Position numbers and translations under genes: made by a program
Shown here: one piece after another, positions 22,003 to 53,814 of the stretch
How positions within the stretch are numbered: position 1 is the first letter of the stretch
Layout: each line of letters starts with the position of its first letter
Assembly (NCBI RefSeq): GCF_947500325.1
Contig: NZ_CANMRQ010000005.1
Span: 124,001 to 188,000 of the forward strand
Direction: 5' to 3'
DNA from: an uncultured Lacinutrix sp.
GTDB taxonomy: Bacteria; Bacteroidota; Bacteroidia; Flavobacteriales; Flavobacteriaceae
DNA: 64,000 nt
Notes under the pieces: model-generated
Seen by the model: the letters and a program-made list of their open reading frames with translations, nothing else
Told to the model about the DNA's origin: nothing
Databases searched by the model: none

Positions 22003-22896
22003 TTGCCTGTACTCGAAACATTACTGTATTTTTCTGTTTTTAATTACCCAGTAACTAAAGATGAAATTTTTAACTTTTCCAAAGTTGCCTCGCTTGAAGA
22101 AGTTGATAAACAATTAGAGTACTTATTAAATAAAGGCGTTATTTTTCAATTTGGTCTTTATTTTTCGGTTATAAATAATATACAAGATGTAAATCGTAGA
22201 GAGTTAGGAAACAAAAAGGCTAAAGCGATTCTACCAAAAGCTAAAAAAGTAAGTAAATTTATATCTAAATTTCCTTATGTAGAAAATGTAAGTATATCTG
22301 GTGCATTATCTAAAGGTTATTATGATGACGAAGGTGATTTTGATTTTTTTATTATAACTACTCCTAATAAATTATGGATAGCTAGAACACTATTAATTAT
22401 TTTTAAAAAAATATTTTTACTTAATTCTAAAAAGTATTTTTGTGTTAATTATTTTATTAGTAGTAATCATTTAAATATACCTGAACGCAATAGATTTACT
22501 GCTACAGAAATTACGACTCTAATACCTGTTTATGGGAAAGCGCCTTTTTCTAAATTTATACAAGAAAACAATTGGGCTAAAAATGAATTCCCAAATAAAA
22601 AAATTGTTAATTCTGAAACGATAGAAGCTATAAAAAAACCAATAATAACTAAGTGTATAGAACGTGTTTTCAATACTCATTTTGGAGATTTACTAGATGA
22701 TACTTTTAGAAAAATGACATTGAAAAAATGGAAGATTAATTTTAATCATATGAGTGAAGAAGATTTCAAAATAGCAATGAAATCTACAAAAAATGTATCT
22801 AAACATCATCCTCAACATTTTCAAAAAAAAGTAATAAATGAGCTAGAATATGCTTACAATGATATAACGCAAAAGTATAATTTAGAATACGTATAA
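22003..22896 (+). CDS. Winged-helix plus nucleotidyltransferase-like protein
   Basis: A 297-residue protein. Residues 1-60 look like a winged-helix domain (YPVTKDEIFNFSKVASLEEVDKQLEYLLNKGVIFQFGLYF). This is followed by a nucleotidyltransferase-type core: GALS at 100-103, then acidic residues D112 and D114 in GDFDFF, the pattern of the metal-binding D-x-D. The usual third acid is not identified. The TTG start at 22003 follows an AT-rich leader. It opens an eight-gene plus-strand operon of radical SAM, methyltransferase and SGNH genes (2 bases to the next gene). It could transfer a nucleotide to a small molecule or protein. The substrate is unknown. Confidence 0.6.
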   Translation: MPVLETLLYFSVFNYPVTKDEIFNFSKVASLEEVDKQLEYLLNKGVIFQFGLYFSVINNIQDVNRRELGNKKAKAILPKAKKVSKFISKFPYVENVSISGALSKGYYDDEGDFDFFIITTPNKLWIARTLLIIFKKIFLLNSKKYFCVNYFISSNHLNIPERNRFTATEITTLIPVYGKAPFSKFIQENNWAKNEFPNKKIVNSETIEAIKKPIITKCIERVFNTHFGDLLDDTFRKMTLKKWKINFNHMSEEDFKIAMKSTKNVSKHHPQHFQKKVINELEYAYNDITQKYNLEYV

Positions 22897-22898
22897 TA

Positions 22899-24335
22899 AT
22901 GTTTGACGTACTTTTTTCACACTCTTATTTTTATAAGTTTGACCAAAAGCAATGGGATAACAAAACTCCTTTCCCTCCTTTGGGCACGTTATATGCAGCT
23001 TCATTTCTAAGAGAAAATGGTTATAAAGTATCTCTTTTTGACACTAATTTAATAGATAAACCTGAAAGTATTTTTGAAAAGTTAAAAACGGTAAAACCAA
23101 AATTTTTTGTTCTCTACGACGATGGGTTTAATTACCTAACAAAAATGTGTTTAACAACAATGAGAGAAGCAGCTTTTAAAATGATGTCTATAGCTAAAGA
23201 AGCTGGTTGTATTGTTATAGCGAACAGCTCAGATTCTACAGATCATTTTGAAAAATACTTAGATAATGGTGCCGACTTTATTATTAAAGGCGAAGGTGAA
23301 GAAGCTTTAAAAGAACTAATAGATAGCATTACTTTAAATCAAGCGACTACTACAATTAAAAGTATTGTATATAAAAAAGAAAATGAAATTATAGAAAACC
23401 CTAAAAGGCCTGTACTAAGAGATTTAGATGTATTACCATTACCTGCCTGGGATTTAATAAACATAGATGATTACAAAGCTATTTGGGAGTTAAGTGGTAA
23501 AGCATTCACTTTAAATATTGCAACAACAAGAGGTTGCCCTTTTAAATGTAATTGGTGCGCTAAACCCATATATGGCAATCGTTATAATTCGCATTCACCA
23601 GCTTATATTACAAAACACATTAAATACCTATCCGATACTTTTAATGTTAAACGTTTTTGGATGTGCGACGATATTTTTGGTTTAAAACCTAATTGGGTTC
23701 AAGAATTTAATATTCAATTAAAAACTCATAAATTAAATATTTCATACTATATACAAAGTCGTGTAGATCTGTTACTAAAAGAAGACACTATAGATGCATT
23801 AGTTGAAAGTGGTTTAGAAGAGGTTTGGGTTGGTGCAGAAAGTGGCTCTCAAGCTATTTTAGACGCCATGGATAAAGACACTAAAGTAGAGCAAATATAC
23901 GAAGCCACTAAATTACTTAAAACTAAAAACGTTAGAGTAGCATTTTTTATACAATTTGGCTATTTAAATGAAACTAAAGAAGACATTGATAAAACAATAC
24001 AAATGATTAAAGAACTGGTTCCAGATAATATAGGAGTTTCAGTTTCTTATCCATTACCAGGAACAAAATTTTATGAGAAAGTAAAAGATGATTTAATACT
24101 TAAAGCAAACTGGACCGACTCTGACGATTTAGCAATGATGTTTAAAGGTACTTATAGCACTGAATTCTATAGAAAGTTACAACGCTACGTTCATAAAGAA
24201 TATCGTAAAAGTCAAGGGTTATATAACCTAAAACACTTTAATATTAGTAAAATAAAATCTATACTTAAATTAGCCTACTATTTGCCAAGTGCTTTTTACG
24301 ATAAATTTCTTTTAAAAAAATTAGCGAAACAATAA
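22899..24335 (+). CDS. B12-binding-domain radical SAM protein
   Basis: A 478-residue protein: an N-terminal B12-binding-type Rossmann domain (about residues 1-140, with FPPLGTLYAASFLRENGYKV and FIIKGEGEEALKELI), a radical SAM barrel with the iron-sulfur motif C213-x3-C217-x2-C220 (RGCPFKCNWCAKP), and a C-terminal part. The family cleaves S-adenosylmethionine to start radical reactions, often methylation of unreactive carbon or phosphorus with methylcobalamin. The substrate here is unknown. It resembles the second protein of the operon at 26,087 (both keep xxYG after the Cys motif), so they may act on related substrates. Confidence 0.88.
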   Translation: MFDVLFSHSYFYKFDQKQWDNKTPFPPLGTLYAASFLRENGYKVSLFDTNLIDKPESIFEKLKTVKPKFFVLYDDGFNYLTKMCLTTMREAAFKMMSIAKEAGCIVIANSSDSTDHFEKYLDNGADFIIKGEGEEALKELIDSITLNQATTTIKSIVYKKENEIIENPKRPVLRDLDVLPLPAWDLINIDDYKAIWELSGKAFTLNIATTRGCPFKCNWCAKPIYGNRYNSHSPAYITKHIKYLSDTFNVKRFWMCDDIFGLKPNWVQEFNIQLKTHKLNISYYIQSRVDLLLKEDTIDALVESGLEEVWVGAESGSQAILDAMDKDTKVEQIYEATKLLKTKNVRVAFFIQFGYLNETKEDIDKTIQMIKELVPDNIGVSVSYPLPGTKFYEKVKDDLILKANWTDSDDLAMMFKGTYSTEFYRKLQRYVHKEYRKSQGLYNLKHFNISKIKSILKLAYYLPSAFYDKFLLKKLAKQ

Positions 24336-24344
24336 ATTAGGTTT

Positions 24345-25286
24345 ATGAATTGGAAAATTAAAGCCTTACTTCAAAAAGTTTTATCCGCTACAAAGTTAGG
24401 AGATAATTTAAATCATATTCCAGCTACTTTAAACAAAAAATACAATTACAATACTACTTTATACCAAACACATGAATGCATAAGAAAATTTAGTTATTGT
24501 AACATAGACCTTTCTTTAAAGAAAACAGCATTAGAAATAGGAACTGGCTATTCATTAATTTCTGCTATTGTGTTATCGCTACTTGGATTTCAAAAAATAA
24601 TAACTATTGATATCACTAAAGACGTACGCGTTTCAACATATAAAAAACAAAAGGAATATTTAGATCACCCGGAAATTCTTAAATTAATATACTCTAATAG
24701 TATCTATACAAAGATAGAAGTAATAAATAGGATAAATAAAATTAAAGAAAGTAACACATTAGAAACACTTCTTAAGTTATTAAACATAAAATATATCGCC
24801 CCTTATACGTTTGAAGACATACTTAAAGAACACAAACAAATTGACTATATATCTTCCCAAGTTGTACTAGAGCATATTACACCCAAAACATTAAATAAAT
24901 TATTTAAATTCACAAAAGAGACAATTAGTAAAGGTCAGTTTTGTGTACATACTATTAATTTTATAGATCACTTTACCAATCCTGGTTTTTTTCAAGATAA
25001 AACAATATCTGAATTTAATTTCTTAAAATATTCAAATCGATTTTGGAGATTTTGGGCAGGAAATTCTATAGCATATACTAATAGATTGTCTTATATATAC
25101 TATATTGAATTATGTAAAAAATATAATTTAAAAGTAATTGATTTTATAGGTGAAAATTATAAACTAAGAAAAGAATTAAGGCCTGAATTAATCCATCAAG
25201 ATATTTTAAATAAATATGATTCTAATGTTAATCTTGAAGATTTAACAAAATACCAAAGAGGCACACTAATAATTTCTAATATATAA
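24345..25286 (+). CDS. Class I SAM-dependent methyltransferase-like protein
   Basis: A 313-residue protein with the class I methyltransferase motif I TALEIGTGYSLISAIVLS (about residues 65-82), an acidic end of strand 2 (ITIDI), and a possible motif near IDYISSQVVLEHIT. It lacks a signal peptide, so it is cytosolic. It sits 9 bases after a B12-type radical SAM gene and directly before a second methyltransferase. The acceptor is unknown. Confidence 0.78.
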   Translation: MNWKIKALLQKVLSATKLGDNLNHIPATLNKKYNYNTTLYQTHECIRKFSYCNIDLSLKKTALEIGTGYSLISAIVLSLLGFQKIITIDITKDVRVSTYKKQKEYLDHPEILKLIYSNSIYTKIEVINRINKIKESNTLETLLKLLNIKYIAPYTFEDILKEHKQIDYISSQVVLEHITPKTLNKLFKFTKETISKGQFCVHTINFIDHFTNPGFFQDKTISEFNFLKYSNRFWRFWAGNSIAYTNRLSYIYYIELCKKYNLKVIDFIGENYKLRKELRPELIHQDILNKYDSNVNLEDLTKYQRGTLIISNI

Positions 25287-26081
25287 ATGAAAGCTGATTT
25301 TGACATAGCATCAAGTCAATACGATACTATTTTTACCTTTTCTAATATTGGTAAAGCGCAACGTAATCGTGTATATAAACACATCACTCCATTATTAAAA
25401 CAAAAAAAGAAATTATCTATTTTAGAATTAAACTGCGGTACAGGTGAAGATGCCATACAGTTTGGAAACCTAGGGCATAATGTAATTGCAACAGATATCT
25501 CTAAAGGGATGATTGAAATTGCAAATAACAAACCTCACCCTAAAAATGTTAGTTTTAGCACATTAGATATTAATTTAATTTCCAAAGCTTCATTCTCAAA
25601 TAAATTTGACATTATCTTTTCTAACTTTGGAGGACTAAACTGTTTGTCAAAAGAACAATTAAATACATTCTTAAAAGAATCTATCAACTTACTAAATACA
25701 AATGGTAAATTAATATTAGTTATTATGCCTAAAAATTGCCTTTGGGAAAGATTATATTTTTCGTTAAAAGGAAACTTAAAAAAAGCGAAAAGAAGAAATA
25801 CAACAAAAAGTGTTATAGCAAATGTTGATGGTGTTGGTATAGAGACATGGTATTACAATGCTGAAGATATTGTATCTTTAACAAATGGATTATACACATT
25901 AAAAACTGTAAAACCTATCGGTCTGGCTATTCCGCCTTCATATCTTGAAAATTCTATTTTGGCTAAAAAACCACTATTATCTATTTTTAAAGGCATTGAT
26001 GCTTTATTTACAGGAGCTTTTTGGGCAAAATATGCAGATCATTTTTTAATTGAATTAACAAAAAACGAGCAACAGATATAA
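25287..26081 (+). CDS. Class I SAM-dependent methyltransferase
   Basis: A 264-residue methyltransferase. Motif I is ILELNCGTGEDAIQFGNLGH (about residues 41-60), followed by VIATDISKGMIEIA. Motif IV is FDIIFSNFGGLNCL. It belongs to the UbiE/Methyltransf_11-like group. It starts directly at the stop of the preceding gene, so the two are translationally coupled. The C-terminal segment (GLAIPPSYLENS) may form part of the acceptor site. Acceptor unknown. Confidence 0.88.
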   Translation: MKADFDIASSQYDTIFTFSNIGKAQRNRVYKHITPLLKQKKKLSILELNCGTGEDAIQFGNLGHNVIATDISKGMIEIANNKPHPKNVSFSTLDINLISKASFSNKFDIIFSNFGGLNCLSKEQLNTFLKESINLLNTNGKLILVIMPKNCLWERLYFSLKGNLKKAKRRNTTKSVIANVDGVGIETWYYNAEDIVSLTNGLYTLKTVKPIGLAIPPSYLENSILAKKPLLSIFKGIDALFTGAFWAKYADHFLIELTKNEQQI

Positions 26082-26086
26082 GTTTA

Positions 26087-27484
26087 ATGAGTATTGTACT
26101 TACACATACCTATTATTTATTTGAAGACCCAAAAGAACAATTAATCATGCGGCCCTATGCCCCACTTGGGTTATTATATATATCATCTTATTTAAATGAA
26201 AATGAGGTAGAAAATCATGTGTATGACTCTACATTTTACTCTAAAGAAGAACAACTTGATTTTATTGCTAAAAAACAACCTAAAGCCCTTGCCATTTACA
26301 CCAATTTAATGACTAAGATTAATGTTATAAAACTGGTAAAAACTTTAAATGAAGACCCAAAATATGGATTTCCAAAAATTATATTAGGTGGCCCAGATAT
26401 AACATACAACTGTGAGAACTATTTAAACACTGGAGTCGATTTTTTAATTATTGGAGAAGGTGAACAAACTATGTTAGAATTATACACTGCCATAATTAAT
26501 AATAATGACTATAGTGAAATTGACGGTATTGCTTATTTAAAAGATGGTAATTTAAAAAAAACGCCTCCACGCATGCGAATGAAAAGTCTTAAAGAATTAC
26601 CTCTGCCAAACAGAGCTGCCATTCCTGTAGAGAAATATTTAGAGACTTGGAAAACACATCATGGACAAAGTTCAATGACAGTAAGTACACAACGTGGATG
26701 TCCATACACATGCAAATGGTGTAGTACGGCTGTATATGGACAAAGTTACAGAAGACGTCCTCCGGATATGGTAGCAGCAGAATTACTTATGCTAAAAAAT
26801 ACCTACAAACCAGATAGTATTTGGTTTGTAGACGATGTATTTAGTGTTAGCCATAAATGGATAGAAAAATTTCATGAAGAAGTAATAAAACAAGGCGCTA
26901 TTATTCCTTTTGAATGTATTACTAGAGCCGAAAGATTAAACGATGAGATATTACAACTTTTAAAAGAAGCTGGCTGCTTTAGAATCTGGATTGGTGCAGA
27001 AAGTGGTTCTCAAAAAATAATAGATGCTATGGACCGTCGTGTAGACGTAGATGTAGTAAAAACTGCTATTCAAAAAACAAATGCTTTAGATATAGAAACT
27101 GGAACTTTTATTATGGTAGGTTACCCTGGTGAAGACGAACAAGATATTAATGAAACCATAAACTATCTTAAAGCTGCAAATCCAACACACTTTACTATTA
27201 CAATAGCATATCCAATAAAAGGAACATCTCTATACAATGAAATAGAAGAAAAAATAATAGTACAACCAAACTGGGAAACATCTACAGATAGAGATATTGA
27301 TTTTAAGAGAACTTATCCTAAGAAATTTTATGATTTTGCAGTTCGACGTATAGTAAATGAAGTCAATTTTAATAAGGAGTTATTAAAAGGAAAAAACAAA
27401 AGTATTTTAAAATCTTTAAAGCTTAAAACAAAATCTATAGTAGCGCAAACTGGAATGAAATTATACAAAACGCATGGAAATTAA
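26087..27484 (+). CDS. B12-binding-domain radical SAM protein
   Basis: A 465-residue protein of the same layout as the gene at 22,899: an N-terminal B12-binding-type domain (YAPLGLLYISSYLNENEVE, ILGGPDITYNCENYLNTGVDF, LIIGEGEQTML), then the radical SAM motif C205-x3-C209-x2-C212 (RGCPYTCKWCSTAVYG) and the SAM-binding stretch FRIWIGAESGSQKIIDAM. Methyl transfer to carbon is the commonest known activity. It overlaps the next methyltransferase gene by 11 bases, implying tight coupling. Confidence 0.9.
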   Translation: MSIVLTHTYYLFEDPKEQLIMRPYAPLGLLYISSYLNENEVENHVYDSTFYSKEEQLDFIAKKQPKALAIYTNLMTKINVIKLVKTLNEDPKYGFPKIILGGPDITYNCENYLNTGVDFLIIGEGEQTMLELYTAIINNNDYSEIDGIAYLKDGNLKKTPPRMRMKSLKELPLPNRAAIPVEKYLETWKTHHGQSSMTVSTQRGCPYTCKWCSTAVYGQSYRRRPPDMVAAELLMLKNTYKPDSIWFVDDVFSVSHKWIEKFHEEVIKQGAIIPFECITRAERLNDEILQLLKEAGCFRIWIGAESGSQKIIDAMDRRVDVDVVKTAIQKTNALDIETGTFIMVGYPGEDEQDINETINYLKAANPTHFTITIAYPIKGTSLYNEIEEKIIVQPNWETSTDRDIDFKRTYPKKFYDFAVRRIVNEVNFNKELLKGKNKSILKSLKLKTKSIVAQTGMKLYKTHGN

Positions 27485-28229
27485 TGCGCTACATAAAGCA
27501 AATAATGTATTGTATTTAACCACAGTACAATCGCAATTTTCTAATATGTACATTGCTGTTCGAGAAAAAGAACAACGCCTTTTTACAGATGAAGAAATTA
27601 GTAATCTTCCGTATACATCCATACAAAATGTACACGCTAAAGAATGGAAATTACGCCAAAAATCGACAACACGATTTACATACTATCTAGAAACAAAACA
27701 ACAACCACAAATCATTTTAGATATTGGTTGTGGAAACGGTTGGTTTTCTAAAGAAATGGCTCTTGTCTCTAAAAAAAATCACATTATTGGTTTAGATGTC
27801 AATACTGAAGAATTAGAACAAGCCTCACGAATTTTTAAGTATTCAAACTTACAATTTGTGTATGGAAACATTTTTGAAATCGATTCTTTTTCAAAACAAT
27901 TTGACATCATAACATTAAATGGAAGCGTACAATATTTTCCAGATTTTAAAGAATTATTCCAAACATTACAATCGTTTTTAAAACCTAAAGGAGAAATTCA
28001 TATTATTGACAGTCCTTTTTATGCATCGCATAAAATTATAGAAGCTGGAAATAGAACCTTAGACTATTATACAACACTTGGTTTTCCAGAAATGGCTGCA
28101 AATTATCATCACCATGAAATAAAATATGTTTCAAATTTTGATGTATTATACAAATATCAAAGAAGTATTATTAATAAATTATTAGGTAAAAAAGATTCCC
28201 CCTTTTCTTGGTTTCGTTACACCAAATAA
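27474..28229 (+). CDS. Class I SAM-dependent methyltransferase
   Basis: A 251-residue methyltransferase with motif I ILDIGCGNGWFSKEMALVS (about residues 80-98), acidic GLDVN, then FDIITLNGSVQYF (motif IV). It belongs to the Methyltransf_11/25-like group. It overlaps the preceding radical SAM gene, and the pair may act in sequence on one substrate. Acceptor unknown. Confidence 0.88.
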   Translation: MEINALHKANNVLYLTTVQSQFSNMYIAVREKEQRLFTDEEISNLPYTSIQNVHAKEWKLRQKSTTRFTYYLETKQQPQIILDIGCGNGWFSKEMALVSKKNHIIGLDVNTEELEQASRIFKYSNLQFVYGNIFEIDSFSKQFDIITLNGSVQYFPDFKELFQTLQSFLKPKGEIHIIDSPFYASHKIIEAGNRTLDYYTTLGFPEMAANYHHHEIKYVSNFDVLYKYQRSIINKLLGKKDSPFSWFRYTK

Positions 28230-28259
28230 AACATTATTAAAGATTTATAAATTTACCTC

Positions 28260-29345
28260 ATGAAGTATTTACAAACAAGACTCTTAAAAAGACTAGCCTT
28301 TTCAGGACTTGTTTTTGTTCTTTTATTAGTTATAGCAGAAATAGTGCTTTCTTGGCTAAAAATATTTCCTAACGATTATTATACTAATACACCAAATGCA
28401 AGCAATAAGTATAGTGAAAACCCAAGTAAAATAGATGGTATTTCGGGGTTTTATGAGATATCATACGATGCTCTAGGTTCACGATCTGTTTCAGATTACT
28501 CAAAAGCAACTAATAAGATTGTTGCTATTGGAGGAAGCACAACAATCTGTTCTGTATTAACTCAAGAAAAAACTTGGACTGCTTTACTTGATAAAAAACT
28601 AGGAGACACTTATTGGGTTGGTAATTTTGCTAGAAGCGGAAATAGTAGTAATCACCATGTATTTCAATTTCAACATATTCTAGACAAGCCCGAGTTAAAA
28701 GATACAAAAGTAGTATTGATGTTAGTTGGTGTAAACGATTGTCGAGGCTACTTAATCTCTAAAGACAAGTATATGCATATGCCTGATATACTAGTTAAAA
28801 AAAGTGCTTTTGGCCATATCCCAAATTCAGAATTACCTTTCTTAAAAAGACTAACATTATTCAAACTGGCAAAAAAAGCAAGGCAGAGAATTCTCTTTCA
28901 TTCCCAACCTAGAAGACCTCTTGATTATTTAGAAACGTATGTGAGCGAAACAGAACCAATTACTAAACTTCCGGATTTAACAGATGGTTTAAATCATTAT
29001 GAAAATAATTTAAAAAAAATTATAAGAGAAGCACAAAAACGAGATATTTCAGTAATTTTTATAACACAGCCTACGCTTTGGCAAAAAAACTTATCAGATA
29101 AATATAAAACCTTACTTGCTGCAAGAGCTCATTATAATAAAACACCTTTGTATACAGGTGAAGCTTTAAATAAAATTATGACTATTTTCAATAAACGCTT
29201 GATCAAAGTATGCATTCAAACTAATACAGAGTATATTGACTTACAATTACCAAAAAATCAAACTATTTTTTATGATGATATGCATTTTAATGAATCTGGA
29301 GCCGAAATTGTTGCAGAAAAAGTATATCAATTTTTAAAAAACTAA
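28260..29345 (+). CDS. Membrane-anchored SGNH hydrolase (copy 1 of a tandem pair)
   Basis: A 361-residue SGNH/GDSL-fold protein: an N-terminal membrane helix (about 13-35), then catalytic blocks: S93 in GGST, glycine in GNSSNHH, asparagine in GVND, and D339-x-x-H342 in DDMHFNESG. SGNH enzymes hydrolyse or transfer acyl esters, and anchored ones often act on surface glycans from the periplasm. The following gene is a clear paralogue, so this is a tandem duplication. The substrate is unknown. Confidence 0.87.
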   Translation: MKYLQTRLLKRLAFSGLVFVLLLVIAEIVLSWLKIFPNDYYTNTPNASNKYSENPSKIDGISGFYEISYDALGSRSVSDYSKATNKIVAIGGSTTICSVLTQEKTWTALLDKKLGDTYWVGNFARSGNSSNHHVFQFQHILDKPELKDTKVVLMLVGVNDCRGYLISKDKYMHMPDILVKKSAFGHIPNSELPFLKRLTLFKLAKKARQRILFHSQPRRPLDYLETYVSETEPITKLPDLTDGLNHYENNLKKIIREAQKRDISVIFITQPTLWQKNLSDKYKTLLAARAHYNKTPLYTGEALNKIMTIFNKRLIKVCIQTNTEYIDLQLPKNQTIFYDDMHFNESGAEIVAEKVYQFLKN

Positions 29346-29348
29346 TTT

Positions 29349-30452: not shown

Positions 30453-30457
30453 TATGA

Positions 30458-32647: not shown

Positions 32648-32737
32648 GATTTTTGGGATGAATTACGTGTATGGTATAAAAAACAATAGTATTTTTTTAC
32701 TATAGCCAATTTAACAACTATATTTATATACACAAAA

Positions 32738-34173: not shown

Positions 34174-34174
34174 T

Positions 34175-44870: not shown

Positions 44871-44898
44871 AATATATTCTATATAAAATTGGCACAAA

Positions 44899-44906
44899 CA
44901 AATATA
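44899..44906 (-). promoter_or_regulatory. -7 promoter element of the SGNH/GT39 unit
   Basis: Minus-strand TATATTTG matches TAnnTTTG. The expected start of transcription (about 44,892) falls after the far-upstream TTG, supporting the start at 44870. There is no good -33 box. Confidence 0.4.
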
Positions 44907-44999
44907 CAGTCTCTCTAAATAGATACTGCACGAAATTTAAAAAATAAAACGCATTCTCATATACTTTATCAAGATAGTATATTTTGCATATTTTAAATG

Positions 45000-45007
45000 T
45001 AAATTTG
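45000..45007 (+). promoter_or_regulatory. -7 promoter element before the SPASM radical SAM unit
   Basis: TAAATTTG matches TAnnTTTG and lies 45 bases before the ATG at 45053. A TTTG upstream is only 13 bases away, too close for the usual spacing. Confidence 0.4.
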
Positions 45008-45052
45008 AGCGGTTTGATTCGTAGATTTACAATAACGTAAAAATAAAGTACC

Positions 45053-46123: not shown

Positions 46124-46148
46124 TCATTAAATAATACTAAAAAAATTG

Positions 46149-47669
46149 ATGGGAAATAAGATTATTATATTCAATCCAAGAAGTGCTAGAGCGAAGCATC
46201 GTTTGCCAAATACTATCATTCAGGTTGGCGCTGCTATTCATGGAAAATATGATTATATTTTTGTAGATGGCAATATGGAAACAGATCCTTGGGAAACCAT
46301 TGATAGTTATTTTAAAACAGGAGAGTTTAAATACTTTTGTTTGACAGTTATGCCTGGTCCTCAACTAAAACAGGCAATTCCTTATGCTAAAAAAATAAAA
46401 CAGTTATATCCTGACTCTATTAATATTTGGGGAGGCTATTTTGCTTCTAACCAATACAAAGCCTGTATGAATTCTGGTTATGTAGATTATATTATTAATG
46501 GCCCTGGGGATAATGCATTCCCACAATTAATAGATATTCTTGAAGGGAAAAGTGATGAAAAATTACTATTTGTCCGTAATTTAATTTATAAAAATGAGGA
46601 AGATGAAATTATACAAACGGTAAAAGAAAAACTACTAGATCAAGATTCATTACCGTCATACCCATATACTTATTTTAATACGTTTTATCCTCTAGAGCGT
46701 TATTTAGCAAAAACTTTTATGGGGAGAAGAACCTTTGCGTATCATTCAAGTATGGGATGCCCGTTTTCGTGTTCTTTTTGTGCTGTTGTACCTATTTATA
46801 ATGCTAAATGGAAAGCAAAATCGGCAGCTACAATTTATAAAGACCTAACCTATTTTAAAGAAAAATATAATATTGATGCTGTAGAGTTTCATGATAATAA
46901 TTTTTTCACATCTAGAAAACGTGTTATGGAATTTTCTAAGTTGGTAATAGATGATAATATAGAATGGTGGGGAGAAGGACGTATTGATACAATTAACAAA
47001 TATTCGGATGAAGACTTGCGTTATATGAGAAAAGCTGGTTGCCGCATGATGTTTTTAGGTGCAGAAACCGGAAATGACGAAGTATTAAAACAAATGAATA
47101 AAGGAGGCACGCAATCTGGCCAAATGATTAAAGATTTTGTTAAACGCATGAAAGATGTCGATATTATTCCTGAGCTTTCATTTGTTCTTGGACTTCCTGG
47201 AGATAATGAAAAAAAAGTATACGAACAGATCCTTTGGGATATTAATTTTATTCGTGAAATCAAATCAATTAATCCTGATGCTGAAATTATTATTTATCTA
47301 TATAGTCCAGTACCAACAGAAGGATCTGAACTTTACCAACAAATAGTAGATGCTGGTTTCTCTTTCCCTTCAAAATTAGAAGAATGGATTGAGCCTAGCT
47401 GGGAAAAATTCGATTTAAGAAAAAACCCTTTAACACCATGGCTAAAACCATATATGATTGACAAAATTCAAAATTTTGAAACAGTTTTAAATGGTTATTA
47501 TCCAACAGCTTCAGATTTTAGAATTAAAGGTTATAAAAAATGGTTATTGAAATTAGTTTCAGGCTATCGTTTTAAATATGGATGGTATAAGTTTCCCTAC
47601 GAAATAAAAGTATTACATAAAATTTGGAAATATCGCCAACCAGAAATTGAAGGTTTTTATTCAGAATAA
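46149..47669 (+). CDS. B12-binding-domain radical SAM protein
   Basis: About 506 residues from the ATG at 46149; a TTG three bases earlier is less likely. An N-terminal B12-binding-type domain (IINGPGDNAFPQLIDILEG) precedes the radical SAM motif C204-x3-C208-x2-C211 (MGCPFSCSFCAVVPIYN) and CRMMFLGAETGNDEVLKQMN. Known relatives methylate carbon or do ring cyclisations with cobalamin. Among the four in the window it is most like the one at 30,458 (both keep a YN-x-K-W stretch after the cysteines). Substrate unknown. Confidence 0.88.
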   Translation: MGNKIIIFNPRSARAKHRLPNTIIQVGAAIHGKYDYIFVDGNMETDPWETIDSYFKTGEFKYFCLTVMPGPQLKQAIPYAKKIKQLYPDSINIWGGYFASNQYKACMNSGYVDYIINGPGDNAFPQLIDILEGKSDEKLLFVRNLIYKNEEDEIIQTVKEKLLDQDSLPSYPYTYFNTFYPLERYLAKTFMGRRTFAYHSSMGCPFSCSFCAVVPIYNAKWKAKSAATIYKDLTYFKEKYNIDAVEFHDNNFFTSRKRVMEFSKLVIDDNIEWWGEGRIDTINKYSDEDLRYMRKAGCRMMFLGAETGNDEVLKQMNKGGTQSGQMIKDFVKRMKDVDIIPELSFVLGLPGDNEKKVYEQILWDINFIREIKSINPDAEIIIYLYSPVPTEGSELYQQIVDAGFSFPSKLEEWIEPSWEKFDLRKNPLTPWLKPYMIDKIQNFETVLNGYYPTASDFRIKGYKKWLLKLVSGYRFKYGWYKFPYEIKVLHKIWKYRQPEIEGFYSE

Positions 47670-47681
47670 TTAGGTAGATTT

Positions 47682-48338
47682 ATGCTTAAAAAAATTAAAA
47701 AAATAATATTTCCTATAGCTAAATTAGCATTTGATACATATCATTTAAAACATCGAAATTATACATATGAAGGTATTGAAGTAGAAATTAGCTCAGAAGT
47801 ATTTCCGCCACATTTTACTATAAGTACAAAAATTCTTCTCGACTATATAAAACCTCTAAATATAACAAACAAAAACTTTTTAGAGCTTGGTTGTGGCTCA
47901 GGAATTATTTCATTATTTGCAGCTTCTAAAGGTGCAAAAGTAACGGCTTCAGATATTAACAAAATAGCAATTAATGCTCTTAAAGATGCCGCTTCTAAAA
48001 ACAACTTTGATGTTGATGTTTTGTATTCTGACTTGTTTGAAAATCTTTCAGAAAAGCAATTTGATTATATTATTATAAACCCACCATATTATCCTAAAGC
48101 ACCTCAAAGTGATAAAGAACGTGCCTGGTTTTGTGGTGAAAACTTTGAGTATTTCAAAGAATTATTTGCTCAATTACCTCAATACATTGCGCCAAATACT
48201 TGGATGATTTTATCTGAAGATTGTGAAATAGAATATATAAAACAGTTAGCTATTAAAAACGGACTTATCTTTGAACTTCTTCAAGAGAAAAGTGTTGTAA
48301 AGGAGAAAAACTATATCTTTAGTATTCATAATTCATAA
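47682..48338 (+). CDS. Class I SAM-dependent methyltransferase, PrmC/HemK-like fold
   Basis: A 218-residue methyltransferase: motif I FLELGCGSGIISLFAASKGA (about 67-86), ASDINKIAI, and the NPPYYPKAP catalytic-type motif IV (N-P-P-Y), which is typical of methyltransferases that modify amide or amino nitrogen. True PrmC is much longer with an N-terminal helical domain, so this is a small paralogue, not PrmC itself. It sits 12 bases after the radical SAM gene. Acceptor unknown. Confidence 0.85.
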   Translation: MLKKIKKIIFPIAKLAFDTYHLKHRNYTYEGIEVEISSEVFPPHFTISTKILLDYIKPLNITNKNFLELGCGSGIISLFAASKGAKVTASDINKIAINALKDAASKNNFDVDVLYSDLFENLSEKQFDYIIINPPYYPKAPQSDKERAWFCGENFEYFKELFAQLPQYIAPNTWMILSEDCEIEYIKQLAIKNGLIFELLQEKSVVKEKNYIFSIHNS

Positions 48339-48343
48339 CTCTT

Positions 48344-49309
48344 TTGCATAAAACTTCGCGAAACATACTATTAGATATTTTAAAAGTCATCTCAGCGCTT
48401 TTCGTAATTTGTACACATTGTGGTTTTTTATTTGAATATAGCGAAGTAGCTTTTCAAACTATTACAAACGGAATTTTTAGAATTGCTGTTCCGTTTTTTT
48501 TCTGTGTTAACGGTTTCTTTTTATACAATGTATTTAAGAATAATCGTATGCGAATATGGTTAAAACGTGTTGGTATATTATACCTTATTTGGATGTTATT
48601 TTACACTTATTTTTGGGTGTTTTTAAATGATTTTAATTTATTAAAAATTATTACGACATTTTTATTTGGCTTTAATCATTTATGGTATTTGGCTGCGCTT
48701 CTTTTAGGTGGATTAGTACTATATATACTTCGAAATGTTTCAAATACAATATTAATTGTAAGTACGTTAATTTTATTTTTGATTGGAATTACTATTCAAT
48801 ATTTAGGACAGCTTCATATATTTTCACAACAAACCACATTAGATAAGTTGATTAATTATCCACCATTACATCGAAATTTTTTGCTATTCGCATTACCGCT
48901 TTTAAGTATTGGTTATGTATTAAGACGCACAAATTATCATACTAAACTCAGCAAAAAATTTGTCATAAACGCAGTCATTATAAGCTTGATGCTTTTAGTT
49001 GCAGAAAATTTGATTACGTATTATTACATAACAGGCAATCTAATCCTCAACACCTATCTTTCCTATATCTTTTTGGCTCCTGCACTGTTGATTGCTGCGT
49101 TTACTTTTAAAATAACATCCAATCTTAACAGTAAAGTAATATCATTATATTCTATTGCTCTTTATTTAATACATCCGTTAATTATCTTTTTAATTCTTCA
49201 TTTTTTTAAATTAGAATCCACACCTTTAACCTTTGTAACAATTTTATTGTCTGGAATTTTAAGTTACTTGCTGATTGCACTCAATAAGAAATTAAAATAC
49301 ATTTTATAA
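48344..49309 (+). CDS. Acyltransferase-3 family membrane protein
   Basis: A 321-residue integral membrane protein with about ten helices and the N-terminal ILLDILKVISALFVICTHCG block, the AT3 family signature whose histidine (H21 in CTHCG) is needed for acyl transfer. It transfers acetyl or other acyl groups from acyl-CoA to sugars across the inner membrane. The TTG start lies 5 bases after the methyltransferase stop. AT3 proteins often pair with an SGNH domain, and the next gene is an SGNH protein encoded separately. Confidence 0.87.
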   Translation: MHKTSRNILLDILKVISALFVICTHCGFLFEYSEVAFQTITNGIFRIAVPFFFCVNGFFLYNVFKNNRMRIWLKRVGILYLIWMLFYTYFWVFLNDFNLLKIITTFLFGFNHLWYLAALLLGGLVLYILRNVSNTILIVSTLILFLIGITIQYLGQLHIFSQQTTLDKLINYPPLHRNFLLFALPLLSIGYVLRRTNYHTKLSKKFVINAVIISLMLLVAENLITYYYITGNLILNTYLSYIFLAPALLIAAFTFKITSNLNSKVISLYSIALYLIHPLIIFLILHFFKLESTPLTFVTILLSGILSYLLIALNKKLKYIL

Positions 49310-49322
49310 AACTCTTATACTT

Positions 49323-50498
49323 TTGAAAAAGAAACTCAAATTTGTCTATATACTATTCCGAAATGTGTTTATTTCGTTTCTTCTCTTAGAAATTGGATTA
49401 GGTATTTTTTATAATTATCACGATAAAAGTGGTATTGATGGTAATACAGAACGTATTATAGCTTCAGGTATATATAATGGTACAGACCTAGATGATACAG
49501 CCATCAAAGAAATTCATAGAGAACTTCGTGAACAAGACATGATGTGGGAACCATATTTACATTATCGTTTTAAGTCAATGAATGGAAAGCACAATACAAT
49601 TTATGAAAATGGACGTCGAAAAACAGTCAATCCAAGCTTGAAAGATTCGGCAACAGCTTTAAAAATATTCTGTTTTGGCGGTTCTACTATGTACAGTTCA
49701 GGCGCACGAGATGAACATACAATTCCATCAGAGTTATCAAAATTAATTCGCACCTCTTTTCCTAATCAAAATGTAGAAATCACTAATTTTGGCTGCCATG
49801 GTTATACTAGAGCTACTGAGAATATTCAACTCCAACATGAATTAATTAAAAACAATATTCCTGATATTGTCATTTTTTATGATGGTGTAAATGAAGTCAT
49901 CTCTGGCCATCAAAATAATGAAGCTGGAGCACCAACAAATGCATACAATCGACGCAAAGAATTCAAAATTGCACACAGTTATAAAAAACGGATTGCATTA
50001 ATGGTGTATTCAAGCAATTTATATAGATTTACCACTACCCTACAACGTAAATTGTTAACTAAATCTGCCTACAAACAACTCGGTCCACGTTCAGACACAT
50101 TAGCTATAGATATTGCAGATACGTATATTGGATTGGTTAAAATTTCGAAGAGTTTTGAAAATGATTATAATTTCAAAGTATTCAACTTTATGCAACCAAA
50201 TATCTATTCTAAAAAGAATCTTAGTGAATACGAACAAGGAGCTTACGAAAGTCAACAGTATTATGAAAATTTATACAGATTGTCGTATGAAAGAGTTCGT
50301 AACGATTCCTTAATGATAAAAGATAATACATTTGTTGATATTAGCAATGTATTTGATACAGCTAAGCAAACCATTTATTTCGATTTTTGCCACACAGGCG
50401 AACTTGGTAATCAATTAGTTGCCAAAAGAATTTTTGAATATATAAAACCTGAATTATCTATAAAAAACACTACTGACCATGAATTTAATAATGATTAA
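49323..50498 (+). CDS. Membrane-anchored SGNH hydrolase
   Basis: A 391-residue SGNH protein: an N-terminal anchor (about 10-28), serine in CFGGSTMYS (about residue 119), glycine in NFGCHGYTR, asparagine in YDGVNEVIS, and D-x-x-H in FDFCHTGELG. It begins with TTG 13 bases after the AT3 gene, giving a possible acyl-carrier relay (AT3 to SGNH) like fused AT3-SGNH proteins. It ends directly against the convergent gene's stop. Confidence 0.84.
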   Translation: MKKKLKFVYILFRNVFISFLLLEIGLGIFYNYHDKSGIDGNTERIIASGIYNGTDLDDTAIKEIHRELREQDMMWEPYLHYRFKSMNGKHNTIYENGRRKTVNPSLKDSATALKIFCFGGSTMYSSGARDEHTIPSELSKLIRTSFPNQNVEITNFGCHGYTRATENIQLQHELIKNNIPDIVIFYDGVNEVISGHQNNEAGAPTNAYNRRKEFKIAHSYKKRIALMVYSSNLYRFTTTLQRKLLTKSAYKQLGPRSDTLAIDIADTYIGLVKISKSFENDYNFKVFNFMQPNIYSKKNLSEYEQGAYESQQYYENLYRLSYERVRNDSLMIKDNTFVDISNVFDTAKQTIYFDFCHTGELGNQLVAKRIFEYIKPELSIKNTTDHEFNND

Positions 50499-51494
50499 TT
50501 ATTGAATTTTATTTTGTAAAAATGCATGTAATGCATAATTCCCATCGTAATTAATATGTGGATCATTGGCAAAATATAATCTAGAATTCGTTGTATCTTT
50601 TGATTGAAAAAATGTTAGCGGATTTAGATGTCTAACATTTTTATAGCTACTTAAATCTTTTTCTGCTTTATAGAAAAAAGGATAATTATTTTGCTGAATA
50701 ATTTTCTGGTCTCCAAATATTGCCCCAAGTGTTTTCATGTTTTCATAGTAATAATCATTTACTTGTACCGCATGGGGAATCCACAATAAATATACTTGTA
50801 CATCTTTAGGGATAACATCTAAAAAATCTTGCATATGTTCTAACCAAGACAAGTAACGTTTTTTGAAATCCCCTTTTAATAATAATACATTATCTAAATA
50901 AGAAGCATCATATTGTAAAAAACGTTTAGTACGAATGTCATAAAGATTCGCATCAAATTCGTTTTTAACCATACCTTTTAATCTAAAATCTTTTTTAACA
51001 TTAAGAAACGATAAACGCTGGTTTAAATACCCTAAACTTAAAAAATGATCTGAAGCTTCCCAATATAAATTCCTTGCTATAGAAAATTTCTCTAAATCCC
51101 ATAAATGATTAACATCTATTAAGTCGTTACCAACATATACTTGATATAGAATAGCTTTGGGCTTCTGTTTTTTTATTTTTTTTAGGGCAAATGTATTGAC
51201 TTGTTTAATACCAAATCCCGGAACACTATAATTTACTATCGAAAAATTATTAGAACTTTCTCGTAGCATATCTAAATAATTAATCGCTTTGGATGTCGCA
51301 GAAAAAGAATCTCCAAAAACCATTAAATCTACGTTATTATTTTCTAGTTCTTTTTTTGTATTTAAACCTTCACTTTGAATTTTATAGAAGTCTATTACAT
51401 TATAACGATAACATATTTCAAATAAAAATAATGTTACAAGAATTATAATTGAACATTTAAATAGTAGTTTGCAAATTCTTTTTAAAAACAGCAT
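50499..51494 (-). CDS. Membrane-anchored SGNH hydrolase-like protein, carbamoyltransferase-associated
   Basis: A 331-residue protein with an N-terminal membrane helix (about 8-26) and SGNH-type blocks: VFGDSFSAT (about residue 60), NYSVPGFGIKQ, VGNDLIDV, and a short D-x-H (NDPHINYDG). It lies 7 bases after a DUF5989 gene in the carbamoyltransferase set. Comparable sets elsewhere often include an SGNH-type gene (from memory). The active site appears intact, but its role next to a carbamoyltransferase is not known. Confidence 0.8.
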   Translation of the reverse strand: MLFLKRICKLLFKCSIIILVTLFLFEICYRYNVIDFYKIQSEGLNTKKELENNNVDLMVFGDSFSATSKAINYLDMLRESSNNFSIVNYSVPGFGIKQVNTFALKKIKKQKPKAILYQVYVGNDLIDVNHLWDLEKFSIARNLYWEASDHFLSLGYLNQRLSFLNVKKDFRLKGMVKNEFDANLYDIRTKRFLQYDASYLDNVLLLKGDFKKRYLSWLEHMQDFLDVIPKDVQVYLLWIPHAVQVNDYYYENMKTLGAIFGDQKIIQQNNYPFFYKAEKDLSSYKNVRHLNPLTFFQSKDTTNSRLYFANDPHINYDGNYALHAFLQNKIQ

Positions 51495-51501
51495 TTGTTA
51501 A

Positions 51502-51660
51502 TTAAAACAAGGTATAAACAAATGGAGCTATTACTGAATTCTCAGTAAAAAGAACTAATGCTGTTAATAGTACTAAAACAATAATGATAGGTATTAGCCA
51601 AAACTTTTTTTGTTCTATTAAAAAAACACCTAATTGTTTTATGGTTTGATACTTACTCAT
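51502..51660 (-). CDS. DUF5989/SxtK-like small membrane protein
   Basis: A 52-residue gene too short for common gene-finder limits: ATG at 51660, stop TAA at 51502. The sequence begins MSKYQTIKQLGVFLIEQKKF, then one membrane helix (about residues 22-38) and ends with the conserved SVIAPFVYTLF tail, the hallmark of DUF5989. It sits between the SxtJ-like gene (2 bases) and the SGNH gene (7 bases). The sxtIJK set of saxitoxin clusters has the same order; function unknown. Confidence 0.88.
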   Translation of the reverse strand: MSKYQTIKQLGVFLIEQKKFWLIPIIIVLVLLTALVLFTENSVIAPFVYTLF

Positions 51661-51662
51661 AA

Positions 51663-52073
51663 CTAACTTAATTTTTTATAATCTATTTTCCTTGTAACTG
51701 TTTTCCATTCTGGTTTATACGGCTTGTCTTTTCTAGAAAGCCTTAAGATAAGAGATATTGGAGAAAAAAGCACAAAATAAACAGCTCCCATAATTAAAAA
51801 ACTTGAAATAACCCCTAATAATTCACCTATTAATAGCCATATAATCAAGAAAGGTAATAAAATACGTCGGATAGTAAAAGTGATAAATAAGATCAAAAAG
51901 AACGCTGTAATAATTATAATTTGCGATTGATTTAATACAATACCATTTTTATATATAGAAACACCAAAAACGATTACAAGAACGACCAACAATAAATAAC
52001 CAAACTCCTTTTGCTTTTTGGGTTGGCGACTAGATTGTAAAACTTTTTCTAAAATAGATTTAATCCAATTCAT
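51663..52073 (-). CDS. SxtJ family membrane protein
   Basis: A 136-residue protein with about three or four hydrophobic helices (residues 25-43, 51-69, 75-110) after a basic N-terminus, and the SPISLILRLSRKDKP tail found in SxtJ. It overlaps the carbamoyltransferase end by 14 bases, so it is translationally coupled. SxtJ proteins accompany O-carbamoyltransferases in saxitoxin and other clusters; the biochemical role is unknown. Confidence 0.87.
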   Translation of the reverse strand: MNWIKSILEKVLQSSRQPKKQKEFGYLLLVVLVIVFGVSIYKNGIVLNQSQIIIITAFFLILFITFTIRRILLPFLIIWLLIGELLGVISSFLIMGAVYFVLFSPISLILRLSRKDKPYKPEWKTVTRKIDYKKLS

Positions 52074-53814
52074 AACTTAAATTTATAGTTAATCTTTTAT
52101 CTACAGTCGAATTATCTAATTTTGTTAAAATAAAATTACCTAAAACCAAGACATCCATTTTTGTATGAAAGAAACACTTTAAAGCATCTAATGGTGATTC
52201 TACAATTGGTTCACCTCTTACATTAAATGATGTATTTATTAAAATAGGGCAATCTGTTCTTGCTTTAAAGTTAGTCATTAATTGATGTAATAAAGGGTTT
52301 TCTCCTCTATTTAATGTTTGAACCCTTGCTGTATTATCCTCATGTATGCAAGAAGGTATTTTATTTTTTTTATCACTTTTAAATGTAAACAACATGTATT
52401 TAGAAATACTGCCTTTCATATCAAACCATTCATTACAATCTTCTTCAAGAACAATAGGTGCAAATGGTCTAAAGCCTTCCCTAAACTTAATATTTAAATT
52501 AACATGCTTCTTCATATCTTCAAATAATGGACTAGCTAATATACTTCTATGTCCTAAAGCTCTGGGACCAAACTCCATTTCACCTTGAAACCATCCAATA
52601 ATTTTTTTATTCTGTAGCGCTAAAGAAACCGTATCACAAAGTGTCTTATCATCCAATTTCTTATAAATTAAATTATAAGTCTTTAAATACTGTTCTATTA
52701 GAGTATTGTTATATGAAGGCCCTAAATATATTTGATTATTTAGAGTGTTTTTTAAATACACTCTATCTTTTTTTAAATAATGATTCCAGCCAATAAATGC
52801 AGCCCCTAAAGCACAACCAGAGTCACCAGAACCAGGTTGAACCCATACTTCATCAAATATTCTCTCTCCCAGAATCTCTCCATTAGCTTTACAATTTAAT
52901 GCTACACCTCCAGAAAGGCACAAATTATTTAAACCAGTTATAGATTTAGCATAAGTTAGTATAGAAATAATAATATCTTCAATAACGGATTGAATCGAGC
53001 TAGCAATATTACAATAGAAATCGTCCATCTTATCCTCTAAAGCTCTTTGTTTCTTTCCAAAAACGTTACAAAACGTTGAATTTATTGTTGATTTTCCTTT
53101 TTCAAAAGAAAAACAATCTAAGTTTAATACTACTAAACCAGAATCATCATAGCTAACTATATTATCTAAAATAAGTTGTTTGTATATAGGTTTACCATAA
53201 GGCGCTAATCCCATTAATTTATATTCACCAGAATTAACCCTAAAACCACAATATTGAGTAAAAGCAGAATATAGTAATCCTAAAGAATGTGGATAATGCT
53301 GTTCTTTTATAAGATCTATCTTATTATCTTTTCCAATAGCTATAGTTGTACAGGCTTTTTCTCCAACGCCATCAATAGTAACAATAACTGCTTCTTTAAA
53401 AGGCGATGTAAAAAAACTTCCTGCAGCATGAGCTTCATGATGTTCACTGTAAATAATTTCTCCTTTATAATTTAACTCTTTTGTAATCTCACTTGAAACC
53501 CACAGTTTACTTTTTAACCATGACATTAGGGTCTTTCTAAACAAATTAAATGTAGTAGGTGCTTGGTTTTGTAGTGTATTAATAATACGATCAAACTTAA
53601 CGAAAGGTTTTTCGTAAAATACTACCAACGTAACTGCAGAAATATCGATTTCAGCTTGCTTTAAACAAAAATTAATGGCTTTAATTGGAAAAGAAGGATC
53701 ATGTTTTATTCTTGAAAATCGTTCTTCTTGTACTGCTGCTATAACTTCACCTTCTTTAATTAAACAAGCAGCAGAGTCATGATAAAAAGCCGAAATTCCT
53801 AAAATATAATCCAC
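52060..53814 (-). CDS. O-carbamoyltransferase (NodU/CmcH/SxtI family)
   Basis: A 584-residue enzyme of the family that adds a carbamoyl group from carbamoyl phosphate to a hydroxyl through an ATP-dependent carbamoyladenylate. Seen: N-terminal ISAFYHDSAACLI and QEERFSRIKHDPSFP, histidines in EHHEAHAAGS, LSGGVALNCKANGEIL, and WFQGEMEFGPRALGHRSILA near residues 410-430. In NodU it modifies Nod factors; in SxtI, saxitoxin. Here the target is probably a sugar or lipid hydroxyl (inference). Confidence 0.93.
   Translation of the reverse strand: MDYILGISAFYHDSAACLIKEGEVIAAVQEERFSRIKHDPSFPIKAINFCLKQAEIDISAVTLVVFYEKPFVKFDRIINTLQNQAPTTFNLFRKTLMSWLKSKLWVSSEITKELNYKGEIIYSEHHEAHAAGSFFTSPFKEAVIVTIDGVGEKACTTIAIGKDNKIDLIKEQHYPHSLGLLYSAFTQYCGFRVNSGEYKLMGLAPYGKPIYKQLILDNIVSYDDSGLVVLNLDCFSFEKGKSTINSTFCNVFGKKQRALEDKMDDFYCNIASSIQSVIEDIIISILTYAKSITGLNNLCLSGGVALNCKANGEILGERIFDEVWVQPGSGDSGCALGAAFIGWNHYLKKDRVYLKNTLNNQIYLGPSYNNTLIEQYLKTYNLIYKKLDDKTLCDTVSLALQNKKIIGWFQGEMEFGPRALGHRSILASPLFEDMKKHVNLNIKFREGFRPFAPIVLEEDCNEWFDMKGSISKYMLFTFKSDKKNKIPSCIHEDNTARVQTLNRGENPLLHQLMTNFKARTDCPILINTSFNVRGEPIVESPLDALKCFFHTKMDVLVLGNFILTKLDNSTVDKRLTINLSYELD

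What the first reader, a model, noticed from the sequence alone, without database searches (positions are those of the whole stretch)
22003..53814. Large undescribed-looking biosynthetic/decorating locus combining radical SAM, SGNH, GT-C and carbamoylation genes
In 32 kb I count four B12-type and one SPASM radical SAM protein, six class I methyltransferases, six SGNH proteins, four glycosyltransferases (one DPM1-like GT2, two GT-C, one GT4), a flippase, NodB, GNAT, AT3, 2OG oxygenase and a carbamoyltransferase set. Wzy, Wzz/Wzc/Wza and nucleotide-sugar synthesis genes were not seen. It does not look like an ordinary O-antigen or capsule locus. Inference: it builds and decorates an unusual surface glycan or glycolipid.
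Basis: partly seen in the sequence, partly recalled or inferred. Interest (0 to 1): 0.85.

Follow-up and report, generated by a model that had tools for sequence, protein, structure and literature searches.

The report
Variable glycan locus with B12-enzyme ends
A 32-kilobase block of a marine flavobacterium most likely builds a heavily decorated surface glycan or glycolipid; relatives show a swappable middle held between two constant sets of vitamin-B12-type radical enzymes whose job is unknown.

Summary
The gene list is right, with small corrections. Near-complete versions keep the gene order in congeners and two other genera, so it is one unit. It sits between rmuC and carB, which lie 1.7-1.8 kb apart in seven congeners without it.

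Comparison of 14 loci changes the picture. The ends are constant: NTase-rSAM1-MT2-rSAM2 on the left, rSAM4-MTS on the right. The middle is swapped between species (glycosyltransferases, SGNH proteins, a sulfotransferase, a heptose-type set). Each of the 14 has one exporter: 11 Wzx/MurJ-type flippases, 3 ABC-type proteins. Two chromosomal homes recur, rmuC|carB and polA|rplM. In two distant relatives the left module sits beside a Wzy_C gene, in one also Wzz.

New is the constant B12-type radical-SAM set: rSAM1 accompanies rSAM4 in 15 of 17 genomes across the phylum and nearly always has a winged-helix nucleotidyltransferase nearby. Inference: this set makes a conserved C-methylated or remodelled unit on which variable parts are built. 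No chemistry is shown.

The parts
22003..22896 (+). NTase: winged-helix + minimal nucleotidyltransferase; constant left end
22899..24335 (+). rSAM1: B12-type radical SAM; constant left end
   Evidence: PF04055 64.8 bits, PF02310 29.8 (below cut-off 32.1); in 24 of 395 phylum genomes
24345..25286 (+). MT1: probable class I methyltransferase, facultative
   Evidence: No Pfam hit; invariant EIGTG; in 3 of 13 other loci
25287..26081 (+). MT2: class I methyltransferase; constant left end
   Evidence: PF13649 56.5 bits; in 13 of 13 other loci
26087..27484 (+). rSAM2: B12-type radical SAM; constant left end
   Evidence: PF04055 85.4, PF02310 39.1; in 13 of 13 other loci
27474..28229 (+). MT3: class I methyltransferase, common
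   Evidence: PF13847 72.6 bits; in 7 of 13 other loci
28260..29345 (+). SGNH1, membrane-anchored
   Evidence: PF13472 44.1; hydrophobic segment 6-38, GGST, DDMH
29349..30452 (+). SGNH2, paralogue of SGNH1
   Evidence: PF13472 55.3; one cluster with SGNH1
30458..31906 (-). rSAM3: B12-type radical SAM, facultative
   Evidence: PF04055 65.9, PF02310 52.4; in 3 of 13 other loci
31907..32647 (-). GT2, DPM1-like
   Evidence: PF00535 71.2; NCBIfam AglJ 63.3 and PpgS 55.1, far below cut-offs
32749..34173 (+). GT-C 1 (PMT_2)
   Evidence: PF13231 29.1 vs 26.1; 9 hydrophobic segments
34145..35161 (+). NodB-type deacetylase
   Evidence: PF01522 76.5
35163..36089 (+). GNAT
   Evidence: PF13527 28.1 vs 25
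36092..36937 (+). FkbM methyltransferase
   Evidence: PF05050 63.5; TIGR01444 92 vs 37.7
36970..38019 (+). GT4
   Evidence: PF00534 72.3
38012..39154 (+). MOP-superfamily flippase (Wzx/MurJ-like)
   Evidence: Model pLDDT 88.2; Foldseek MurJ E 4e-6, WzxE E 9e-6, first MATE E 6e-5
39215..40048 (-). 2OG-Fe(II) oxygenase
   Evidence: PF13640 69.8
40167..41240 (+). SGNH3, membrane-anchored
   Evidence: PF00657 27.8 vs 23.6; GDS, DLH
41354..42067 (+). MT24 methyltransferase
   Evidence: PF13578 48.4; clustered only with a G102 protein
42139..43749 (-). GT-C 2 (PMT_2)
   Evidence: PF13231 47.8; 11 hydrophobic segments
43746..44897 (-). SGNH4, membrane-anchored
   Evidence: No Pfam; GDSL_LA_2486 22.7 vs cut-off 300; invariant GDS, DGH
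45053..46123 (+). SPASM radical SAM
   Evidence: PF04055 54.0, PF13186 42.9; in 8 of 13 other loci
46146..47669 (+). rSAM4: B12-type radical SAM; constant right end
   Evidence: PF04055 58.8, PF02310 29.6 (below cut-off); 69-91% identical in 13 others
47682..48338 (+). MTS methyltransferase; constant right end
   Evidence: PF05175 66.5; in 12 of 13 other loci, not G152
48344..49309 (+). AT3 acyltransferase
   Evidence: PF01757 90.0
49323..50498 (+). SGNH5, membrane-anchored
   Evidence: PF25182 19.6, far below cut-off 80; invariant GGST, N190, D354, H357
50499..51494 (-). SGNH6; place of SxtL in the carbamoylation cassette
   Evidence: No family hit; invariant GDS, GND, DPH
51502..51660 (-). 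52-aa one-helix protein, place and size of SxtK
   Evidence: 74-90% identical stretches next to SxtJ in G001, G004, G009, G031; no NCBIfam hit
51663..52073 (-). SxtJ-family membrane protein
   Evidence: PF19588 28.4 vs 24.4
52060..53814 (-). O-carbamoyltransferase (NodU/TobZ/GdmN type)
   Evidence: PF02543 261.7, PF16861 224; HxxxH at 125; solved relatives E 9e-89 to 1e-66

Best explanation
A variable glycoconjugate locus, probably for the cell surface. Shown by sequence comparison: constant ends (NTase-rSAM1-MT2-rSAM2 / rSAM4-MTS), a swappable middle, one exporter in each of 14 loci, two recurrent chromosomal homes. Inferred mechanism: (1) in the cytoplasm the constant enzymes make or modify a conserved unit by radical, probably cobalamin-dependent, C-methylation or remodelling plus further methylation; the nucleotidyltransferase adenylylates a substrate or regulates the operon. 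(2) GT4 and other cytoplasmic enzymes (FkbM, NodB, GNAT, 2OG, carbamoyltransferase with SxtJ and the 52-aa protein) extend and decorate it on a polyprenyl or other lipid. (3) The MOP flippase, or an ABC-type protein in three relatives, carries the lipid-linked intermediate across the inner membrane. (4) In the periplasm the two GT-C enzymes add sugars from a polyprenyl-phosphate donor made by the DPM1-like GT2, and AT3 plus six anchored SGNH proteins add, move or remove acyl groups. (5) It reaches its final place by machinery encoded elsewhere.
For: Order conserved in congeners and in other genera. In 13 other loci rSAM1, MT2 and rSAM2 are in 13, MTS in 12, NTase in 13. One exporter in 14 of 14 loci, 11 MOP (one split into two ORFs, G001) and 3 ABC; flippase fold MurJ/WzxE-like. 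Swappable middle: GT87, GT9, HAD/epimerase/PfkB-cytidylyltransferase/SIS set, a sulfotransferase, an NKWYS protein. Left module beside Wzy_C (G065, G082) and Wzz (G065). rSAM1/rSAM4 co-occurrence 15 of 17 rSAM4 genomes against 24 of 395 with rSAM1, Fisher p 3e-19, kinship not corrected. Of the best 80 named loci 79 show NTase, 73 MT2 and 6 others the related c77 methyltransferase, 72 rSAM2.
Against: No chemistry or location is shown. The minimal locus of G206 has no recognised glycosyltransferase, so the core product might not be a sugar. In G443, G573, G588 and G592 NTase-rSAM1 has nothing like the middle or right end recognised nearby (only an MT2-like methyltransferase in three and an rSAM2 homologue in G588, and generic ABC matches), and rSAM4 was not found in those genomes. 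PF02310 is just below cut-off in rSAM1 and rSAM4. No initiating sugar-phosphate transferase was seen among the scanned locus proteins. Wzy_C genes are in all 16 genomes searched, also in congeners without the block, so their presence elsewhere in G000 says nothing for the locus. Five of the more distant MOP proteins rest on 15-28% identity and a profile that includes them.
Confidence: 0.7

Rival explanations
1. The product is a modified lipid or other lipid-linked small molecule, not a glycan: the radical SAM core works on an isoprenoid or fatty chain, and sugars, sulfate, carbamoyl and acyl groups are head-group decorations.
For: Below-cut-off NCBIfam relatives include HpnJ, HpnR and rSAM_ladder_B12; the G206 locus has an exporter, a sulfotransferase and an NKWYS protein but no recognised GT; three loci have an ABC-type exporter.
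Against: Equally good below-cut-off matches to BchE, PhpK, ApyD give no substrate; many loci have GTs; Wzy_C/Wzz beside the module in G065.
Confidence: 0.17
2. It is the outer-glycan locus of the Bacteroidota protein O-glycosylation system (LFG-like).
For: Similar constant/variable layout, a Wzx-type flippase, methyl- and acetyl-bearing glycans in that system (PMC12871550, passages).
Against: LFG starts with metG-wzx and ends in two conserved GTs; here the ends and flanks are other genes; rSAM1 is in only 4 of 13 congeners, while the review says that within a species generally all proteins carry the same glycan and speaks of a shared system.
Confidence: 0.08
3. A neighbourhood of unrelated genes, or a diffusible natural-product cluster, without a surface product.
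For: Many tailoring enzymes per GT; carbamoyltransferase set as in sxtI-J-K-L (PMC2679770 passages).
Against: Order conserved over genera; a lipid-carrier type flippase fold; no NRPS, PKS or peptide-precursor family for the 29 locus proteins scanned.
Confidence: 0.05

Closest known systems
Wzx-dependent O-antigen/capsule loci
   Same: Constant ends with a swappable middle, Wzx/MurJ-type flippase, GTs, acyltransferase; two relatives with a heptose-nucleotide-type set; in G065 and G082 Wzy_C beside the left module, in G065 Wzz
   Different: No Wzy, Wzz, initiating transferase or nucleotide-sugar genes seen in the window's locus; constant genes are B12-type radical SAM proteins, methyltransferases and a winged-helix nucleotidyltransferase
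Bacteroidota LFG locus (protein O-glycan, PMC12871550, passages seen)
   Same: Phylum, flippase, conserved ends with variable middle, methyl/acetyl decoration
   Different: metG-wzx start and two conserved GTs at the end there; other genes here
sxtI-sxtJ-sxtK-sxtL carbamoylation set (PMC2679770, passages seen)
   Same: Carbamoyltransferase, SxtJ family, ~52-aa protein, SGNH/GDSL-type protein in the same order in the window, G001 and G004
   Different: In G031, G102 and G134 the SGNH6 gene lies on the other side of the carbamoyltransferase; it is a facultative end of a glycan-type locus (6 of 13 others); saxitoxin core genes were not searched for, and no amidinotransferase family appeared
B12-type radical SAM methylases/cyclases (BchE, HpnJ, PhpK, AprD4)
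   Same: CxxxCxxC and an N-terminal B12-binding-like domain
   Different: Best NCBIfam models score 106-161 bits against cut-offs of 481-600 (best 25 rows shown per protein)
Leptospira rfb locus (recalled; only a search listing seen)
   Same: Recalled: many SGNH and radical SAM proteins in an LPS locus; SGNH4 hits two GDSL models of LA_ (recalled as Leptospira) locus tags far below cut-off
   Different: Not compared here

Membership tests
Wzx/Wzy-dependent O-antigen or capsule locus | Wzx-type flippase in the locus | tested here: met
   Fold MurJ/WzxE-like; MOP in 11 of 14 loci, ABC in 3
Wzx/Wzy-dependent O-antigen or capsule locus | Wzy polymerase in the locus | tested here: not met
   No PF04932 match on contig C5 of G000; beside the left module in G065 and G082, a family that holds ligases too
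Wzx/Wzy-dependent O-antigen or capsule locus | Constant flanks with variable middle between strains or species | tested here: met
Wzx/Wzy-dependent O-antigen or capsule locus | Nucleotide-sugar synthesis genes | tested here: not met
   None in the window's locus; a heptose-type set in G243 and G198
Wzx/Wzy-dependent O-antigen or capsule locus | Product is a surface polysaccharide | not testable with these tools
   Needs chemistry
Bacteroidota LFG locus | metG-wzx start and two conserved terminal GTs | tested here: not met
   Neighbours in the window are rmuC-thioesterase-DUF5777-YceI and carB, elsewhere polA and rplM; constant ends are NTase/rSAM and rSAM4/MTS; metG itself was not searched for in the genome
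SxtI-J-K-L carbamoylation set | O-carbamoyltransferase + SxtJ | tested here: met
   PF02543/PF16861 and PF19588 above cut-offs
SxtI-J-K-L carbamoylation set | SxtK small protein and SGNH/GDSL partner | tested here: inconclusive
   52-aa ORF by size and place only; SGNH6 by motif only
Cobalamin-dependent radical SAM (class B) enzymes | Radical SAM core with CxxxCxxC | tested here: met
Cobalamin-dependent radical SAM (class B) enzymes | Cobalamin-binding domain | tested here: inconclusive
   PF02310 above cut-off in 2 of 4, just below in 2 of 4
Minimal nucleotidyltransferase (MNT/ANT) superfamily | NTase motif S-G...D-x-D | tested here: met
   Invariant in 16 sequences
Minimal nucleotidyltransferase (MNT/ANT) superfamily | NTase fold | tested here: inconclusive

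The most novel reading that the evidence does not exclude
The constant set (winged-helix nucleotidyltransferase, rSAM1, MT2-type methyltransferase, rSAM4) is an undescribed pathway, with rSAM1 seen in at least eleven Bacteroidota families and rSAM1 with rSAM4 in eight, that makes a conserved radical-built, B12-dependent unit (a C-methylated or rearranged sugar, or a lipid anchor) serving as adaptor or carrier for otherwise freely exchangeable surface glycans.
Probability: 0.3. Interest if true: 0.75.

Novelty: new variant of a known kind. Interest (0 to 1): 0.52.

Why it matters
It turns an odd gene list into a testable system: a pair of B12-type radical SAM enzymes with a nucleotidyltransferase, found together across the phylum and embedded in Flavobacteriaceae in a variable glycan-type locus. 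If the core product were known, the chemistry of a large class of marine bacterial surface glycans, and perhaps one reason for their vitamin B12 demand, could be read from genomes.

Tried and rejected
Rejected: chance assembly of genes (order conserved). Rejected: membership in a named B12-radical-SAM equivalog (none of the listed models reaches its cut-off). Rejected as membership: LFG locus, full Wzx/Wzy locus (see table).

Led nowhere: literature. Searches returned no paper; others gave listings (12, 12, 1, 6 and 10 rows) in which no title or abstract opening described this locus; 67 was about sxt genes (5 of 8 rows seen). Passages were seen of PMC4293000, PMC12871550 and PMC2679770 only. 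PDB sequence search found nothing for SGNH4 and SGNH6 at E 0.1 and one weak hit for SGNH5 (CgnD, E 4e-4); for the NTase three weak hits, best E 0.41, an MNT antitoxin. Foldseek for the NTase gave no match below E 0.001; that is not taken as a new fold. Horizontal exchange: against G004, GT2 is 83-87% identical in five Kordia loci and rSAM3 77-80% in four, while polA is 72-74%; three Winogradskyella loci with polA at 87-91% show no rSAM3 orthologue, SGNH2 or NodB in the stretch read (25 of 80 loci printed). This suggests exchange of the middle, but no tree was built.

Rows left out: the 14-locus census omits G009 (same block, many frameshifts) and G227 (contig starts at rSAM4), i.e. 14 of the 16 rSAM4 loci seen. 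The further rSAM4 loci among the 80 and are not in it. The MOP profile was built from nine of the 11 MOP proteins plus that of G036. A1 omits G274 and G206. joins two searches with different E-value limits and takes their draws of 395 genomes to be the same. In some searches neighbours were recognised only by similarity to my query set. The 571 relatives are tblastn matches at E 1e-3 and may include paralogues. G626 shows an rSAM4-like ORF but none at 1e-80. G427 was not read.
Full report
What is there. The window is G000:C5:124001-188000. G009 has a contig of the same length (3905328) as Lacinutrix neustonica HL-RS19 and is in the window's genus, so the window is from that GTDB genus (inference). 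The 30 genes of 22003-53814 are tightly packed, with overlaps at 27474, 34145, 38012, 43746 and 52060. carB (53943) is a housekeeping gene, matched in 13 of 13 genomes of the genus.

One block. rmuC and carB are matched in 13 of 13 genomes of the genus. In seven congeners without the block (G002, G005, G006, G008, G010, G011, G012) the two matches lie 1.7-1.8 kb apart, in G007 6.2 kb. G003 keeps a piece of the carbamoyltransferase (residues 2-335, 84%) between them, read as a relic. In G001, G004 and G009 nearly the same genes in the same order sit elsewhere; differences: MT24 is missing in all three, the SPASM gene in G004 and G009, and in G001 MT1 lies beyond the carbamoyltransferase and SGNH5 is doubled. 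In G031, another genus, a shorter version (no rSAM3, 2OG, SGNH3, AT3, MT1, MT24, SGNH1/2) is at the same rmuC-carB place. G229, whose contig length is that of a Kordia periserrulae contig, has a near-complete version too.

Constant ends, variable middle. rSAM4 is found in 13 of 299 family genomes, 13 of 236 genera, this one included. In 13 other loci rSAM1, MT2 and rSAM2 are in 13, NTase in 13 (12 in the clustering, where the range cut G274's), MTS in 12, SPASM and GT2 in 8, MT3 in 7, carbamoyltransferase in 6, rSAM3, AT3, 2OG, FkbM and SGNH3 in 3. The middle of other species brings GT87, GT9, a set of HAD phosphatase, epimerase, PfkB-cytidylyltransferase and SIS proteins (the pattern of heptose-nucleotide synthesis; inference from Pfam) with two more radical SAM proteins, a sulfotransferase with an NKWYS protein, and ABC-type transporters. 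Each of 14 loci has one exporter: 11 MOP, 3 ABC. The MOP profile was built from nine of the 11, so the fold check of the window's own flippase (MurJ and WzxE first) is the independent part. Among the 80 best named loci (of 571 relatives in a capped list) 79 show NTase, 73 MT2, 72 rSAM2, 38 polA and 21 YceI: two homes, polA|rplM and rmuC|carB. G206 lies at neither.

Beyond the family. rSAM1 is in 24 of 395 phylum genomes from 11 families, rSAM4 in 17 of 395, both in 15; Fisher p 3e-19, kinship not corrected. Of 20 rSAM1 neighbourhoods read (of the 24), 20 contain an NTase homologue, 15 of them right beside rSAM1. In G443, G573, G588 and G592 nothing like the middle or right end was recognised nearby and rSAM4 was not found in the genome. 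In G065 (Wzz, Wzy_C) and G082 (Wzy_C) the left module lies beside such genes.

Reading. A lipid-carrier type exporter, exchangeable GTs and activated-sugar genes, and anchored acyl enzymes point to a lipid-linked glycoconjugate. The constant radical SAM/methyltransferase/nucleotidyltransferase set points to a conserved unit. That this unit is C-methylated, or a sugar at all, is inference; a lipid is the main rival. The six SGNH proteins have their catalytic Ser and Asp/His, so they are probably active transferases or esterases. The carbamoyltransferase with SxtJ, a 52-aa protein and an SGNH protein repeats the order of sxtI-J-K-L here and in G001 and G004, not in G031, G102 and G134; it looks like a general carbamoylation cassette.

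B12. A cobalamin riboswitch (12599-12807, minus, 97.5 bits) heads a TonB receptor, and Peripla_BP_2, FecCD and ABC genes follow: a likely B12-uptake region next to the rmuC home. ORFs of matching size and start lie beside rmuC in G003, G007 and G010, which lack the block, so this neighbourhood is not evidence of a functional link.

Novelty. The layout is of a known kind; I found no description of the constant gene set in searches, which cover only open papers. Hence 'new variant of a known kind', interest 0.52.

Noticed in passing
window 12599-12807 (-) and 8865-15861: Cobalamin riboswitch before a TonB receptor, with DUF5074, Diphthami_syn_2, Peripla_BP_2, FecCD and ABC genes: a likely B12-uptake region beside the rmuC home of the locus.
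   Followed up: partly
L042 (G003:C25, about 82557-83561): A 5' piece of the carbamoyltransferase between carB and rmuC in a congener without the block: probable relic of a lost locus.
   Followed up: partly
L031:17879-18997 (-) and homologues in G218, G290, G243, G198: A ~370-aa lipoprotein-like protein next to rSAM2, with a CxxCH haem-type motif in the copy read (G274), no Pfam hit; matched in 29 of 80 named loci, absent from the window.
   Followed up: partly
L023/L024 (G243) and L039/L040 (G198): Heptose-nucleotide-type gene set plus a GT9 protein and two further radical SAM proteins in the variable middle.
   Followed up: partly
L036:4336-5974 (G206): Minimal locus: core genes, flippase, a sulfotransferase and an NKWYS protein, no recognised glycosyltransferase.
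   Followed up: partly
L005/L006 (G009): Same block with many frameshifts; carB and rmuC of this assembly carry internal stops too, so probably sequencing errors.
   Followed up: no
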